Shown piece by piece: positions 221-12,618 of a DNA stretch of 23,580 nt. This stretch comes from a virus: positions 1 to 23,580 of the IMG/VR virus record IMGVR_UViG_3300048800_000176. One strand, written 5' to 3'. Both the position numbers and the translations under genes were made by a program. The notes under the pieces are model-generated. The model was given only the letters and a program-made list of their open reading frames with translations, made no database searches and was not told where the DNA came from. Positions within the stretch are counted from its first letter, which is position 1; every line of letters begins with the position of its first letter.

Positions 221-754
221 ATGATTCAAATCACGCACCGAGCCAGCGAAAAGACCCTATACACGTCCGAAACTGCCACGGATATCCGTACGGCTTTGGA
301 GGAGGCTGTGAAAAGCGATGCCGATCTCAGCGATGCCAATCTCAGCTTTGCCAATCTCAGCGGTGCCAATCTCAGCGATGCCAATCTCATCGGTGCCAAT
401 CTCAGCGGTGCCGATCTCATCGATGCCAATCTCAGTGATGCCGATCTCAGCAATGCCAAGCTCATCGGTGCCAATCTCATCGGTGCCAATCTCAGCGGTG
501 CCTATCTCCACAGGGCCAAGCTCCGCGGTGCCGATCTCATCGGTGCCGATCTCAGCGGTGCCAATCTCAGCGGCGCCAATCTCAGCGGTGCCTATCTCAG
601 CGATGCCAAGCTCAGCGATGCCAAGCTCCACAGGGCCAATCTCCGCGGTGCCGATCTCAGAGGTGCCGATCTCAGAGGTGCCAATCTCAGCGGTGCCAAT
701 CTCATCGGTGCCAATCTCAGTGATGTAATCGGTCTGTCAGACACTACCCGTTAA
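221..754 (+). CDS. Pentapeptide-repeat protein (177 aa)
   Basis: Residues 1-32 form a short non-repeat cap (starts MIQITHR, ends TALEEAVKS), a cap type often seen in phage and bacterial PRPs. Residues ~33-168 are about 27 A(N/D)LxX repeats that should fold into a right-handed quadrilateral beta-helix, four pentapeptides per turn. The last residues leave the pattern and end in LSDTTR. The start is supported by AGGAG 7 bases upstream and by conservation of the same start in the 4229 paralogue. It is probably cytosolic, since no signal peptide or membrane segment is visible. A DNA-mimic or gyrase-interacting role is possible by analogy to MfpA/Qnr but is inference. It lies just upstream of dnaN in the same direction. 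Confidence 0.88.
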
Positions 755-4228: not shown

Positions 4229-5047
4229 ATGATTCAAATCACGCACCGAACCAGCGAAAAGGTCCTATACACGTCCGAGCCGGCTACGGATATCCGTACG
4301 GCTTTGGAAGAGGCTGTGAAAAGCGGTGCCAATCTCCACAGGGCCAATCTCAGCTTTGCCAATCTCCGCGGTGCCGATCTCAGAGGTGCCAATCTCAGCT
4401 TTGCCAATCTCCGCGGTGCCGATCTCAGAGGTGCCAATCTCCACAGGGCCAATCTCAGCTTTGCCAATCTCCGCGGTGCCGATCTCAGAGGTGCCAATCT
4501 CCACAGGGCCAATCTCAGCTTTGCCAATCTCCGCGGTGCCGATCTCAGAGGTGCCAATCTCAGCTTTGCCAATCTCCGCGATGCCTATCTCATCGGTGCC
4601 AATCTCAGCGGTGCCAATCTCAGCGGTGCCGATCTCCACAGGACCAATCTCAGCTTTGCCAATCTCCGCGGTGCCGATCTCAGAGGTGCCAATCTCAACT
4701 TTGCCAATCTCAGCGGTGCCAATCTCAGCGGTGCCTATCTCCACGGTGCCAATCTCATCGGTGCCAATCTCAGCGGTGCCGATCTCAGAGGTGCCAATCT
4801 CAGCTTTGCCGATCTCAGTGATGCCAATCTCATCGGTGCCAATCTCAGCGGTGCCGATCTCAGTGATGCCGATCTCAGCGGTGCCTATCTCAGCGGTGCC
4901 AATCTCATCGGTGCCAACCTCAGCGGTGCCGATCTCATCGGTGCCAATCTCAGCGGTGCTAACACAGCATCTGCGCAAATGCAGGACAATCGCCGGGAAG
5001 CCGAACAAGACACCGTGAAGGGTATGGATTATGACGCAAAACGATGA
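4229..5047 (+). CDS. Pentapeptide-repeat protein (272 aa)
   Basis: The N-terminal cap (1-32) is almost the same as in the 177-aa paralogue. It is followed by about 42 A(N/D)LxX repeats (~33-245), predicting a beta-helix of roughly ten turns, and by a charged, non-repeat tail of ~27 residues (from NTASAQ) that the other copies lack. The repeat body contains copies of a 60-bp unit (four pentapeptides, one helical turn), some exactly identical, so expansion is recent. The start is fixed by AGGAG and by conservation with 221. The next gene starts 17 bases before this stop. The function is unknown; DNA mimicry as in MfpA/Qnr is a hypothesis only. Confidence 0.9.
4336..4695 (+). repeat. 60-bp direct repeats inside a PRP gene
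   Basis: A 60-base unit beginning CCACAGGGCC and ending GTGCCAATCT occurs at 4336-4395, 4441-4500 and 4501-4560 without change, and at 4636-4695 with one change (CCACAGGACC). A 45-base version lacking the first pentapeptide codons lies at 4396-4440. Sixty bases encode 20 residues, which is one turn of the quadrilateral beta-helix, so each duplication adds a whole structural coil. Confidence 0.9.
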
Positions 5048-8925: not shown

Positions 8926-9630
8926 TTACCCTACCGCTGAAGCAGGAGGCTCCCCTTGCGAAGTGGCCTCAGGAACCCCGGCATCTTCTGCCGGGACATC
9001 AACCGGATAGGACTCTTGCGGAACGTTTGGAGTGGGGAAGAATGCGGATCCTGGGGGGATCTGCACGACTGGAGGCTCCGAAGTGAAAGTGACGATCGGG
9101 TTCGCTGGAACTTCAGGTACTACGTGTTCAACGACCGGATCTGAGAATGTATCCTCGACAGGAAACGTCTGCACAGGGAATTTCACAGGGTTACCGGGAG
9201 GGAACAGCGTAGAAGCAGGCTCCGCGATAACCTCCGGCGCGGGTCCAGGGACTTCAACACTCGGTTGCGGAATCGGATCTTGAGCCGCTGGCGGCGACTG
9301 ATCCTCAGTCATCGGAGCGGCAGTGCTTGCCTCGGGCGGGAAGTTTCGCGCCGATCCTGCTGCGGAAGCGAGACCAGCATCTTCCACTGCAACCGCTGGC
9401 GGCAAAAGCGAGTTGATCTGAAGATTGATGCTGTCTCCGATCATCCCTGGGGATGGGTTGAGTTCCCCCGATCCGCTGACCGCGACATAACCGCCAGTAG
9501 CCTGCGCGAGCTTCATCAATGCTTCAGCGGCATGTACTGCGATCTCCGCTTCACGACCATTGGTTGCCGAAACAACCTGCACGGTGATGCTTTTGGCTTC
9601 GCCTTGAGTTGAAGAGAGAACGAAAGTCAT
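8926..9630 (-). CDS. Proline-rich phage protein with small N-terminal domain
   Basis: Residues ~1-75 form a compact domain in which ALMKLAQATGG is followed by VAVSGSGELNPSPG and a final beta-strand. The pattern resembles small actinophage proteins of unknown function (recollection, not searched). Residues ~78-234 are strongly enriched in Pro, Glu, Val and Ala without cysteine, and are probably extended and unstructured, as in spacer or wall-crossing segments. No signal peptide is seen. The ATG overlaps the stop of the holin-like gene as ATGA, and the next gene starts 2 bases after this stop. A link to the tail or lysis apparatus is inferred from position only. Confidence 0.65.
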   Translation of the reverse strand: MTFVLSSTQGEAKSITVQVVSATNGREAEIAVHAAEALMKLAQATGGYVAVSGSGELNPSPGMIGDSINLQINSLLPPAVAVEDAGLASAAGSARNFPPEASTAAPMTEDQSPPAAQDPIPQPSVEVPGPAPEVIAEPASTLFPPGNPVKFPVQTFPVEDTFSDPVVEHVVPEVPANPIVTFTSEPPVVQIPPGSAFFPTPNVPQESYPVDVPAEDAGVPEATSQGEPPASAVG

Positions 9631-9932
9631 GACTGCACCTGTGTGACAGGAGCAACGTTCTGCGCGTCCGCGAGCGTGACCACAGGCTGCGAGATTTGGT
9701 CAGACGTCGAGACCTTCGTTGGCACGATCGCGACGATTGGACTCGCCGAATCAGCCAAGTGATGAATCGCATTCGCTCCAAGAAACGCAGCCGCAACGAT
9801 CGCCGAGCACAACTGAATCAGGATCGACTTGTTTGGTGACCATGATGGTACGAGGGCAACAACCTGCCCGATGACTGTCGTCAGCCCGGCAATGATGCCA
9901 GCCTGAGTGATGCTGATATGCGTAGTTTTCAT
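9627..9932 (-). CDS. Holin-like small membrane protein (101 aa)
   Basis: The ATG at 9932 has GGAGC 6-7 bases upstream and is preferred to a longer in-frame start that would run inside the peptidase gene. The product has two hydrophobic stretches, ~8-32 (GIIAGLTTVIGQVVALV) and ~37-60 (LIQLCSAIVAAAFLGANAI), separated by a short polar turn (PSWSPNKS), then a polar tail. Two spans, ~100 aa and a position beside a lysin suit a class II holin, which forms holes in the inner membrane. Other small two-span phage proteins would look the same. Confidence 0.62.
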   Translation of the reverse strand: MKTTHISITQAGIIAGLTTVIGQVVALVPSWSPNKSILIQLCSAIVAAAFLGANAIHHLADSASPIVAIVPTKVSTSDQISQPVVTLADAQNVAPVTQVQS

Positions 9933-9940
9933 CAATGCTC

Positions 9941-10738
9941 CTAGATCGTTGATGGCGGTCCAACCCGACGAATAACCCAAAAATCGGCGGCCTGTCCTGT
10001 GTCGAAAAACCATTGAGGAAGATAGAAGTCGCCATTGTCGCCCCATCCAGCGCCCCAACTGTTACGGCATCTTTTAGTTCGCGGCGGAATCTTCCCGATC
10101 GTATCGGTAAAACTGGAGTTGTACCCAGTCAATGCCACGCAATGACGGCCAATAACTTGCTCGCCTTTCCCTGGTATCGGAACGATCCCAGTGGAAGCCA
10201 CCGAAGCACTCTCAAACGATTCGTACACGGTGAACCCAAAAGCGATCGGATACCCGCTAGCAATCGCTTGGTTCAAGTGCGGGTAATAGACGGCCTCATA
10301 AACGAGTGCTTCCTGCTGCTTAGCATCAGCGTACGCTTGCGATCCGGGCGCGACATTGAACACCTGATCGCTGTAAGGGAACTCGTTGTCAGGACAAACG
10401 CCGTACTTCGCGATTCCGGCCACTGAATCTCGAACAGTCGCGCCTGAATCCTGATCAGTGGTCCCTTCAGGAATGCGCGCGTCGTAATAGACCATCGCTC
10501 GACTCGGAACGACAACCGGCTCGCTCTGCTTCACCTGATCGTACATAACGAGCACGCAAGGACCATGACCCGTACAACTACCTTCAGCTCCCTGATCGAG
10601 AACAGGGATGCTCACAGTGTCCAACTCCATACTAACCGGGACCGTCTGCGCGGCGGCAGTGTGCAAGAACTGATGATCTCGCTGATCTGGGGCTTGCGGG
10701 TTCCATCCACCGTAATGTGTCTTGAGCAGATGGCTCAT
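9941..10738 (-). CDS. Papain-like (C1A) cysteine peptidase
   Basis: The 265-aa product shows the complete papain catalytic set: oxyanion Q49 and nucleophile C55 in LDQGAEGSCTG, H199 in GRHCVALTGYN, and N226 in RNSWGAGWGDNG. The N-terminus with P-D-x-R-D (17-21) is the form seen in bacterial C1A enzymes, without a long inhibitory propeptide. No signal peptide is visible, so export would need the holin or the virion. It is translated next to the lysin (ATGA overlap, plus its own AGGGAG 5 bases upstream) and the holin-like gene. It may digest cell-surface protein, process virion proteins or help lysis. C1A peptidases are uncommon in tailed phages. Confidence 0.88.
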   Translation of the reverse strand: MSHLLKTHYGGWNPQAPDQRDHQFLHTAAAQTVPVSMELDTVSIPVLDQGAEGSCTGHGPCVLVMYDQVKQSEPVVVPSRAMVYYDARIPEGTTDQDSGATVRDSVAGIAKYGVCPDNEFPYSDQVFNVAPGSQAYADAKQQEALVYEAVYYPHLNQAIASGYPIAFGFTVYESFESASVASTGIVPIPGKGEQVIGRHCVALTGYNSSFTDTIGKIPPRTKRCRNSWGAGWGDNGDFYLPQWFFDTGQAADFWVIRRVGPPSTI

Positions 10739-11886
10739 GCGAACTCCCTGAAAATTTGGCTAGCCTTGGAGGCGAAGAAGTTGTAACGCTGCCCCTGCCT
10801 CTGACAGACCTGACTTCGATAGGGCTTGCGACAGTTGTTGGTTCTCAGTGACCTTCTGGTCGAGTCTCGAGCGCCGCTGTAGATCGCAAGCTCAGGGCGA
10901 GCTATCTGGCAAGCCGGAACATTCTTCTGCGCGCCAACCCCCCAGCAGTGCGGATGCGATCCCTGATGAATGTCGATTCTCCGCTCAAAACTGATGACCG
11001 TACCAGCAAGAACGTGGCATCGTCTGAAACCGAGAGCGGGAGCTGCGCAACGCAATGACTTGTAAACGGACAACGCCGCATTACGCGCCTTTACCCATCC
11101 TAGAACCGGGTTGGGCGCAGGCTTCGGTGGAGCGTCCGCTGGCTGCTGCCCGTAGTCCAGAGCGATAGCCCGGTCAAAATCGACAGCAGACCCATTCTGG
11201 TACTGCTCGAGCGGCGCGCATCCAGCGGACGGCCAAACTCCGTTCGTCCGATAGAACCACGCATATGTAGCCCAGTTCGTGTTGCCAACAAGATGATGCG
11301 CACAAAGATAGTTGATCGGACCCGCACCGCCATAGGCGTTCGACCTTGAACTCAGAACCGACCGCGCACACGAAAAGTATGGCGCGACATCAGGTCCAGT
11401 GGCGTCAAAGTCGATCGCGAAATCAACGCTAGCGTTCGGGAATCCTAATGCCCGCTCTTCTGACTGTGCGGCCTGCGCGTCTGCGATCCCTGCTCCACAT
11501 CCCCCGAGCGCTCTCGTCGCGCTCGTTTCCCAAACGAAAACCGTCTTCTTTCCAGCAGAATGCCATTTTCTCAGGCAAGAAGCCGTCCAGTTTTTCGATA
11601 GATCGAACGAAAGATAGCTAGCTCCAAAATCATGCCCGCTAGGCGATGGGCATGACCAAGCGAAGTCGATTCCGAGCGCAAAAGTCCTGGCTGACTTCGG
11701 CAAAGGCTGAAGGTTGACCGGCGTTAGCGCGCAGTTCATCGTGAAATCCTTTGGATTGCACGAGCGCCCAGAAACGACTTTCGACGTGGGGACGAGGAAG
11801 ATAACGACCGCGAAAATGGTCACGGCAAGCGCTATGAGAAAAACGAGAAAAAATCTTAGCTTCTTCAACGCGGCACAGAATAGCAC
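10735..11886 (-). CDS. Membrane-anchored DUF1906-like glycoside hydrolase (endolysin)
   Basis: Residues ~9-33 are one strongly hydrophobic span after KK, a signal-anchor (SAR-type) N-terminus. Residues ~68-246 match the DUF1906/Rv2525c-like TIM-barrel glycoside hydrolase pattern: D74 in GIDF, E120 in VWE, D159-F-D161 in AIDFDATGP, QYQ (228-230) and D236. The expected function is peptidoglycan cleavage after membrane release. The start is GTG at 11886; TTG at 11868 is possible. The tail after ~340 is basic and less protein-like, whereas another frame there gives an amphipathic helix ending at 10760, so a frameshift is possible. In the frame given, the stop overlaps the peptidase start as ATGA. 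Confidence 0.78.
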   Translation of the reverse strand: MLFCAALKKLRFFLVFLIALAVTIFAVVIFLVPTSKVVSGRSCNPKDFTMNCALTPVNLQPLPKSARTFALGIDFAWSCPSPSGHDFGASYLSFDLSKNWTASCLRKWHSAGKKTVFVWETSATRALGGCGAGIADAQAAQSEERALGFPNASVDFAIDFDATGPDVAPYFSCARSVLSSRSNAYGGAGPINYLCAHHLVGNTNWATYAWFYRTNGVWPSAGCAPLEQYQNGSAVDFDRAIALDYGQQPADAPPKPAPNPVLGWVKARNAALSVYKSLRCAAPALGFRRCHVLAGTVISFERRIDIHQGSHPHCWGVGAQKNVPACQIARPELAIYSGARDSTRRSLRTNNCRKPYRSQVCQRQGQRYNFFASKASQIFREFA

Positions 11887-11959: not shown

Positions 11960-12031
11960 CTAGACGCGCCGCGCCAGGCTGAGAATCAAAATTATCAAGA
12001 TCACGACGATAAGCAAACTAACTAGGTCCAT
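11960..12031 (-). CDS. 23-aa single-span membrane protein
   Basis: An ATG at 12031 is preceded by the near-perfect ribosome site AGGAGG (8 bases away). The frame encodes a short product whose residues 3-19 are all hydrophobic or serine (LVSLLIVVILIILILSL) and which ends in RRV. This is a single membrane span with a positive C-terminal end, like very small phage or bacterial membrane regulators. It lies directly upstream of the membrane-anchored lysin on the same strand, so a role in lysis timing (pinholin or antiholin type) is a reasonable guess. The strength of the ribosome site argues against chance. Confidence 0.6.
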   Translation of the reverse strand: MDLVSLLIVVILIILILSLARRV

Positions 12032-12103: not shown

Positions 12104-12184
12104 TCATAGCCGTCGTCTTCCGGCGTAAAGAATGCCTCCCGTCCAAAGCGCGGCAAGCAAAGCAAAAATGATCCAGGCCGCCAT
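12104..12184 (-). CDS. 26-aa single-span membrane protein
   Basis: The ATG at 12184 shares its A with the preceding stop (TGATG), which favours coupled translation, and GGGGA lies upstream. The product has residues 2-20 hydrophobic (AAWIIFALLAALWTGGILY) and ends in GRRRRL-like basic residues, giving an N-out/C-in single span by the positive-inside rule. Together with the 23-aa neighbour it forms a pair of micro membrane proteins between the coiled-coil protein and the lysin. Function is unknown; a lysis-control role is inferred from position. Confidence 0.6.
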   Translation of the reverse strand: MAAWIIFALLAALWTGGILYAGRRRL

Positions 12185-12618
12185 CAGTGTCCCCATTGCG
12201 CCAGAATCGCGACAAAAACCCCGGCGTATGCACCCAAAGCACCAAGCCCCATAACCCATATCTGACGGCGAGAGAACCGGGCTTTGGCTTGAATGGAGAC
12301 GCTATTAGCCAGCGCCTGCGTGATCGCCAAGCTCTTGTCCCAAGCGGCGGCCAGCTCAGACATCCCCTCCTTGAGGTCCTCTAGTGCCTTGGCCGTCTTG
12401 CGCTGAGTGTCGTCAATCTCATCCAGCCGCCGTGAGTGGTCAGAGATGTCCCTATCGACAAGGGCATCCTTGACGGCACGCTCAGTCATCTTCTCGGCAT
12501 CAGCAAGTGCCAGTCCGGCGGCGCGGTCTGAGGCGACGCGGACGAGCCCGGCGGCACGGTCCGCGGCCATCCGTGCCAGCATCTCAGCTTTCTGCTCAAC
12601 AGTCTGATTATCCGACAT
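12184..12618 (-). CDS. Coiled-coil protein with C-terminal membrane anchor (XhlA-like layout)
   Basis: The start at 12618 follows GAGGAGGGG. The 144-aa product has a long charged helical region (~5-110) with heptad-like spacing, including the near-repeat VASDRAAGL / MAADRAAGL, and one hydrophobic span near the C-terminus (~118-140, WVMGLGALGAYAGVFVAIL). This order matches the lysis-associated XhlA/holin-partner layout, in which cytosolic coils are tethered to the membrane beside holin and lysin. It is the first gene of the leftward lysis and tail operon. Sequence identity to XhlA is not claimed; only the architecture is similar. Confidence 0.62.
   Translation of the reverse strand: MSDNQTVEQKAEMLARMAADRAAGLVRVASDRAAGLALADAEKMTERAVKDALVDRDISDHSRRLDEIDDTQRKTAKALEDLKEGMSELAAAWDKSLAITQALANSVSIQAKARFSRRQIWVMGLGALGAYAGVFVAILAQWGH

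What the first reader, a model, noticed from the sequence alone, without database searches (positions are those of the whole stretch)
9941..10738. Complete papain-like peptidase in a phage lysis cassette
Q49, C55, H199 and N226 are all present in a gene coupled to a lysin and a holin-like gene. Phage lysis normally needs glycan and peptide-bridge hydrolases, not C1A enzymes. It may cut surface-layer or wall proteins, be carried in the virion, or counter host defence.
Basis: partly seen in the sequence, partly recalled or inferred. Interest (0 to 1): 0.7.

Follow-up and report, generated by a model that had tools for sequence, protein, structure and literature searches.

The report
Papain-like protease in phage lysis cassette
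A probable bacteria-infecting virus carries, squeezed between the genes it uses to burst its host, a protein-cutting enzyme of the papain family; the same pairing recurs in unrelated phages, which suggests an extra tool for opening the cell envelope, but nobody appears to have tested it.

Summary
A 265-aa gene (minus strand, 10738..9941) encodes a papain-fold C1A peptidase of the xylellain type with Q49, C55, H199 and N226 intact. It overlaps a wall-hydrolase-like gene (Rv2525c/DUF1906 type) by 4 bp, and its stop overlaps the ribosome-binding site of a two-TM holin-like gene. A second assembly carries the operon base for base. New here: the lysis linkage recurs. Alicyclobacillus phage MMB025 fuses C1A, DUF1906 and a peptidoglycan-binding domain in one 'endolysin'; THSA-485A has GH25-C1A; Bacillota loci have amidase-C1A. 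In 50 IMG/VR records with this gene, 8 of 19 lysin hits lie within 3 kb on the same strand (2.3 expected, p about 0.0006 under a simple null). The link is not universal: many copies sit elsewhere. Best explanation (0.6): an auxiliary envelope protease of lysis working beside the DUF1906 lysin; substrate (wall peptide or wall/S-layer protein) unknown. Caveats: an Arg beside the catalytic His is unique among 43 relatives, and activity is untested.

The parts
9941..10738 (-). C1A (xylellain-type papain-like) peptidase, 265 aa, no signal peptide or TM segment seen
10735..11886 (-). Rv2525c/DUF1906 glycoside-hydrolase-like lysin, 383 aa, N-terminal hydrophobic segment (possible signal anchor); stop overlaps the C1A start (ATGA)
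   Evidence: PF08924 2.6e-9, PHROG 13480 endolysin; segment and overlap
9627..9932 (-). holin-like protein, 101 aa, two predicted TM segments; RBS overlaps the C1A stop
   Evidence: hydropathy and sequence; no Pfam or PHROG match to the longer frame 9627-10058 that contains it, none in NCBIfam
12184..12618 (-). 144-aa protein with a helical region and one C-terminal TM segment (XhlA-like architecture, by inspection)
   Evidence: a longer frame gave no convincing family
12104..12184 (-). 26-aa hydrophobic peptide MAAWIIFALLAALWTGGILYAGRRRL, start overlapping the upstream stop
11960..12031 (-). 23-aa single-TM peptide MDLVSLLIVVILIILILSLARRV with a strong RBS (aggagg)
8926..9630 (-). 234-aa proline-rich protein, start overlapping the holin-like stop (ATGA); function unknown

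Best explanation
The gene encodes an active papain-like endopeptidase used as an auxiliary lysis enzyme. It is made late from the same operon as the DUF1906 (Rv2525c-like) lysin and a holin-like protein, leaves the cytoplasm when the holin-like proteins permeabilise the membrane (it has no signal peptide of its own), and cuts peptide or protein components of the envelope while the lysin attacks the glycan. Shown: gene, fold, catalytic residues, operon coupling, recurrent linkage or fusion to wall hydrolases in other phages. Inferred: late expression, activity, holin-dependent release, envelope substrate. Open: whether the substrate is peptidoglycan peptide or a wall/S-layer protein.
For: Tight coupling lysin-C1A-holin-like. 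Rosetta-stone fusion: the Alicyclobacillus phage MMB025 'endolysin' joins Peptidase_C1, PF08924 (1e-28) and PG_binding_1. Independent cassettes: Thermoanaerobacterium phage THSA-485A GH25 then C1A; Gordonia and Arthrobacter phages, C1A beside lysin A pieces and holin or membrane protein; IMG/VR L003 with VanY-like, Phage_lysozyme2 and TM genes; Bacillota L148 and L153 Amidase_2 then C1A; Desulfosporosinus L142 C1A next to a DUF1906 gene. Quantified: among 50 IMG/VR records, 8 of 19 lysin-family hits within 3 kb and same strand versus 2.3 expected, p 0.0006. BFVD fold matches include phage proteins named 'Peptidoglycan binding-like' (484 aa) and 'N acetylmuramidase' (385 aa) carrying this fold. 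Catalytic residues kept; fold confirmed.
Against: Many homologs are not in lysis cassettes: neighbours include terminase, tail sheath, RNA ligase and metallophosphoesterase genes; Burkholderia FLC9, Mycobacterium Indlovu, Streptomyces BillNye, Stenotrophomonas RAS14 and Xanthomonas XacN1 carry it elsewhere. Small membrane-protein genes are not significantly enriched next to C1A (37/220 near, 44/372 far, p 0.11). The window protein has substitutions beside the active site not seen in 43 relatives. No wall-binding domain. The uniform null ignores the general clustering of late genes, and two of the 8 records are close relatives.
Confidence: 0.6

Rival explanations
1. The peptidase is a virion-associated protein that degrades surface-layer or wall proteins at entry, and sits near lysis genes only because late genes are neighbours.
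For: In several IMG/VR records the gene lies among terminase, portal, capsid or tail-sheath genes; MMB025 follows tail genes.
Against: No tail or virion domain fused to it; in the window the immediate partners are a lysin and a holin-like gene; the fusion partner in MMB025 is a lysin plus wall-binding domain.
Confidence: 0.13
2. It is an intracellular host-takeover or counter-defence protease (moron) that cleaves a host or defence protein; the operon position only sets late expression.
For: No signal peptide; many homologs lie in solitary or opposite-strand positions in jumbo phages or in tRNA/HNH-rich regions; cellular relatives are mostly stand-alone genes.
Against: Translational coupling with lysis genes and recurrent fusion or adjacency to wall hydrolases; counter-defence genes are usually expressed early (general knowledge).
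Confidence: 0.15
3. The window copy is a degenerate or repurposed C1A that no longer cuts (for example a wall-binding or lysin-regulating subunit).
For: Long branch (1.04 changes per site) and G198R, L52E, L81A at positions otherwise fixed or nearly so in 43 relatives.
Against: Q, C, H, N and the NSWG motif are intact, the reading frame is intact and identical in two assemblies, and the model keeps the papain fold.
Confidence: 0.1

Closest known systems
Xylellain (Xylella fastidiosa C1A peptidase, PDB 3OIS)
   Same: Full-length sequence match (4e-35) and best fold match (TM 0.83); short N-terminal region; same catalytic set.
   Different: Cellular enzyme, not known to be beside lysis genes; about 32% identical in the fold alignment.
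Alicyclobacillus phage MMB025 'endolysin' (XXN61434.1)
   Same: Same two catalytic domain families: xylellain-type C1A and Rv2525c-like domain.
   Different: One 753-aa fusion with a peptidoglycan-binding domain; in the window they are two coupled genes without a recognised wall-binding domain.
Gordonia/Arthrobacter phage 'cysteine protease' genes in the lysis cassette (GMA2, Aleemily, Mareelih, Lilbeanie, Mufasa8)
   Same: C1A gene in the lysis cassette, overlapping the upstream gene, next to holin or membrane protein.
   Different: A distinct shorter C1A lineage (about 18-23% identity to the window), paired with C39, amidase or GH lysins.
C39-like (N5) and RipA-like (N4) domains of mycobacteriophage lysin A
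   Same: Cysteine peptidases used in lysis, N5 assigned to the large papain family (PMC3314691).
   Different: Not C1A proper, and built into lysin A itself.
Thermoanaerobacterium phage THSA-485A GH25 plus 'peptidase C1A papain'
   Same: Glycosidase lysin gene directly followed by C1A.
   Different: Distant C1A (23% identity), GH25 rather than DUF1906.

Membership tests
Peptidase family C1A (PF00112), xylellain type | Significant match to the family profile | tested here: met
   PF00112 1.2e-6, 29.2 bits, cut-off 20.7
Peptidase family C1A (PF00112), xylellain type | Gln-Cys-His-Asn catalytic set in order | tested here: met
   Q49, C55, H199, N226; conserved in relatives
Peptidase family C1A (PF00112), xylellain type | Papain fold, closest to xylellain | tested here: met
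Peptidase family C1A (PF00112), xylellain type | Cysteine-dependent proteolysis | not testable with these tools
   needs enzyme assay with C55A control
Phage endolysin | Gene in a lysis cassette with holin-like gene | tested here: met
Phage endolysin | Recognised peptidoglycan-hydrolase domain | tested here: not met
   only Peptidase_C1 / phage peptidase families found in the protein
Phage endolysin | Peptidoglycan hydrolysis | not testable with these tools
   needs zymogram or muropeptide analysis
Phage endolysin | Route to the wall (signal, anchor or holin) | tested here: inconclusive
   no TM or signal segment in C1A; adjacent two-TM protein looks holin-like only by hydropathy
Coupled or fused C1A plus DUF1906 lysin | Both domains encoded together | tested here: met
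   coupled in window, fused in MMB025, adjacent in L142
Coupled or fused C1A plus DUF1906 lysin | Physical complex or joint activity | not tested
   no complex prediction or assay was made

The most novel reading that the evidence does not exclude
C1A proteases are a recurrent, previously unrecognised class of lysis enzyme: dedicated proteases for protein layers or wall peptides, which here form a functional pair with an Rv2525c-like lysin that in another phage is fused into a single protein.
Probability: 0.3. Interest if true: 0.6.

Novelty: new variant of a known kind. Interest (0 to 1): 0.42.

Why it matters
Lysis models count holins, glycan and peptide-bridge hydrolases, spanins and, in mycolate hosts, lysin B. 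A protease repeatedly recruited into the same cassettes in phages of actinobacteria and Bacillota, once fused to a lysin, suggests that protein layers or unusual wall peptides are a lysis barrier in some hosts. It is directly testable in cultured Gordonia and Arthrobacter phages that carry the gene. If wrong, it still sharpens a common 'hypothetical protein' or 'cysteine protease' annotation.

Tried and rejected
A search of bacterial genomes with the window protein alone found no relative; an alignment-based search found 66 cellular loci at 31-44% identity, mostly stand-alone genes among those inspected. Hypothesis 'C1A always sits in lysis cassettes' rejected. Enrichment of small membrane proteins beside C1A not significant. 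Search for relatives of the DUF1906 lysin returned only the second copy of this phage. Misassembly rejected. Literature searches found no functional study of a phage C1A in lysis; the Gordonia rubripertincta lysis-cassette survey (PMC9671378) mentions no papain-type enzyme.

Full report
Observation. The gene is real, at the stated coordinates, on the minus strand: 265 codons from ATG at 10738 to TAG at 9941. Q49, C55, H199 and N226 are present. It matches PF00112 above the curated cut-off, PHROG 16701 'peptidase' and, best among solved structures, xylellain of Xylella fastidiosa (3OIS, 4e-35). An AlphaFold model (pLDDT 92) has xylellain as first Foldseek match, TM 0.83. The window is a whole 23,580-base IMG/VR record, classed linear and so possibly a fragment. 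A second assembly is 99.95% identical over 14.4 kb and identical across the lysis operon, so misassembly is unlikely, although the two samples may not be independent.

Surroundings. The operon runs leftward: a 144-aa helix-plus-TM protein, two very small hydrophobic peptides (26 and 23 codons), a 383-aa lysin of the Rv2525c/DUF1906 type with an N-terminal hydrophobic segment, the C1A gene, a 101-aa two-TM protein and a 234-aa proline-rich protein. The C1A start overlaps the lysin stop (ATGA) and its stop overlaps the next RBS (taggag), so the three central genes are very probably co-translated. The TM and XhlA-like assignments rest on hydropathy and inspection. The DnaB-type helicase of the window has its best hits mainly in actinophages at about 25% identity, and the DUF1906 lysin hits a Mycobacterium prophage lysin A: an actinobacterial host is likely, not shown.

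Relatives. Xylellain-type C1A genes are common in uncultured viruses: at least 460 confirmed stretches in IMG/VR, and 66 loci in bacterial genomes from many phyla. Q and C are conserved in all 161 aligned homologs and H and N in all 150 that align there; across 18 diverse phage proteins Q, C and H are invariant and N nearly so. The window protein is, however, a long branch, with G198R next to the catalytic His, L52E and L81A where 42 or 43 of 43 relatives agree on another residue; it may have altered specificity or activity.

Is the lysis position meaningful? Independent cases: Gordonia phages GMA2, Aleemily, Mareelih and Lilbeanie have lysin A pieces (C39 plus amidase or glycosidase where named), a small protein, then C1A, then holin; Arthrobacter Mufasa8 has lysin A, two small genes, C1A. 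Thermoanaerobacterium phage THSA-485A has GH25 then C1A. IMG/VR contig L003 has VanY-like, Phage_lysozyme2 and membrane genes upstream. Bacillota loci L148 and L153 have Amidase_2 then C1A. Desulfosporosinus L142 has C1A followed by a DUF1906 gene. Most telling, Alicyclobacillus phage MMB025 fuses C1A, DUF1906 and PG_binding_1 in one protein annotated endolysin, the same two enzyme families that are coupled genes here. On the tree MMB025 groups, on a long and therefore uncertain branch, with the Bacillota lysis-linked copies, away from the window, so the pairing probably arose more than once. Fold matches in BFVD include phage proteins named 'Peptidoglycan binding-like' and 'N acetylmuramidase'; those names were not checked further.

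Quantification. In 50 IMG/VR records with this gene, six lysin families (Amidase_2, Phage_lysozyme, Phage_lysozyme2, M15_4, GH108, GH19) gave 19 hits; 8 lay within 3 kb on the same strand, against 2.3 expected for a uniformly placed gene (p 0.0006). Limits: late genes cluster anyway, two of the eight records are close kin, and the records are those most similar to the window. The link is partial: other neighbours are terminase, tail sheath, nucleases and phosphoesterases (only the 25 commonest families per scan are listed), and several cultured phages carry C1A outside lysis regions. Small membrane proteins are not significantly enriched (p 0.11).

Mechanism. Most likely an auxiliary lysis endopeptidase that reaches the envelope after holin action and cuts wall peptides or wall/surface-layer proteins while the DUF1906 lysin attacks glycan. 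Gene, fold, residues, coupling and recurrent linkage are shown; activity, timing, export and substrate are inferred. C1A enzymes normally cut ordinary L-peptide bonds (general knowledge), which favours a protein substrate, whereas related papain-superfamily C39, NlpC/P60 and CHAP enzymes cut peptidoglycan peptides; the choice is open.

Known versus new. Xylellain-type C1A in Caudoviricetes is published (PMC10380794). Papain-superfamily domains in mycobacteriophage lysin A are published (PMC3314691). GenBank already labels the Gordonia genes 'cysteine protease'. I found no study of C1A as a lysis enzyme, within an open-access library only. I therefore rate it a new variant of a known kind, of moderate interest.

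Noticed in passing
window 12184..12104 and 12031..11960 (minus strand): Two tiny hydrophobic peptides (26 and 23 aa) just upstream of the lysin, the second with a strong RBS; possible mini-holins or lysis regulators.
   Followed up: partly
window 221-754 and 4229-5047: Two pentapeptide-repeat genes with nearly the same N-terminus; the second is 272 aa here and 257 aa in the second assembly (L002), so repeat number varies between near-identical phages.
   Followed up: no
window 10738..9941, residues 52, 81, 198: L52E, L81A and G198R at positions fixed or nearly so in 43 relatives, one of them beside the catalytic His.
   Followed up: partly
L020 and L021 (Stenotrophomonas RAS14, Xanthomonas XacN1): In two jumbo phages the C1A gene lies opposite its neighbours, next to a metallophosphoesterase-type gene and near ribonucleotide reductase genes: a non-lysis context kept between phages.
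   Followed up: no
L015 (Streptomyces phage ZL12) 4989-5813: C1A homolog downstream of tail-like genes in which the catalytic Asn is aligned with Gln (QSWG), possibly altered activity.
   Followed up: no
L009, L010, L012, L013 (about 4.6-5.0 kb): A small conserved protein of about 120 aa precedes and overlaps the C1A gene in all four Gordonia phages; function unknown, called 'putative lysin' in GMA2.
   Followed up: no
L142 6727-7954: Between C1A and the DUF1906 gene of Desulfosporosinus sp. BG lies what looks like a holin-type membrane gene split over two frames (by inspection).
   Followed up: no
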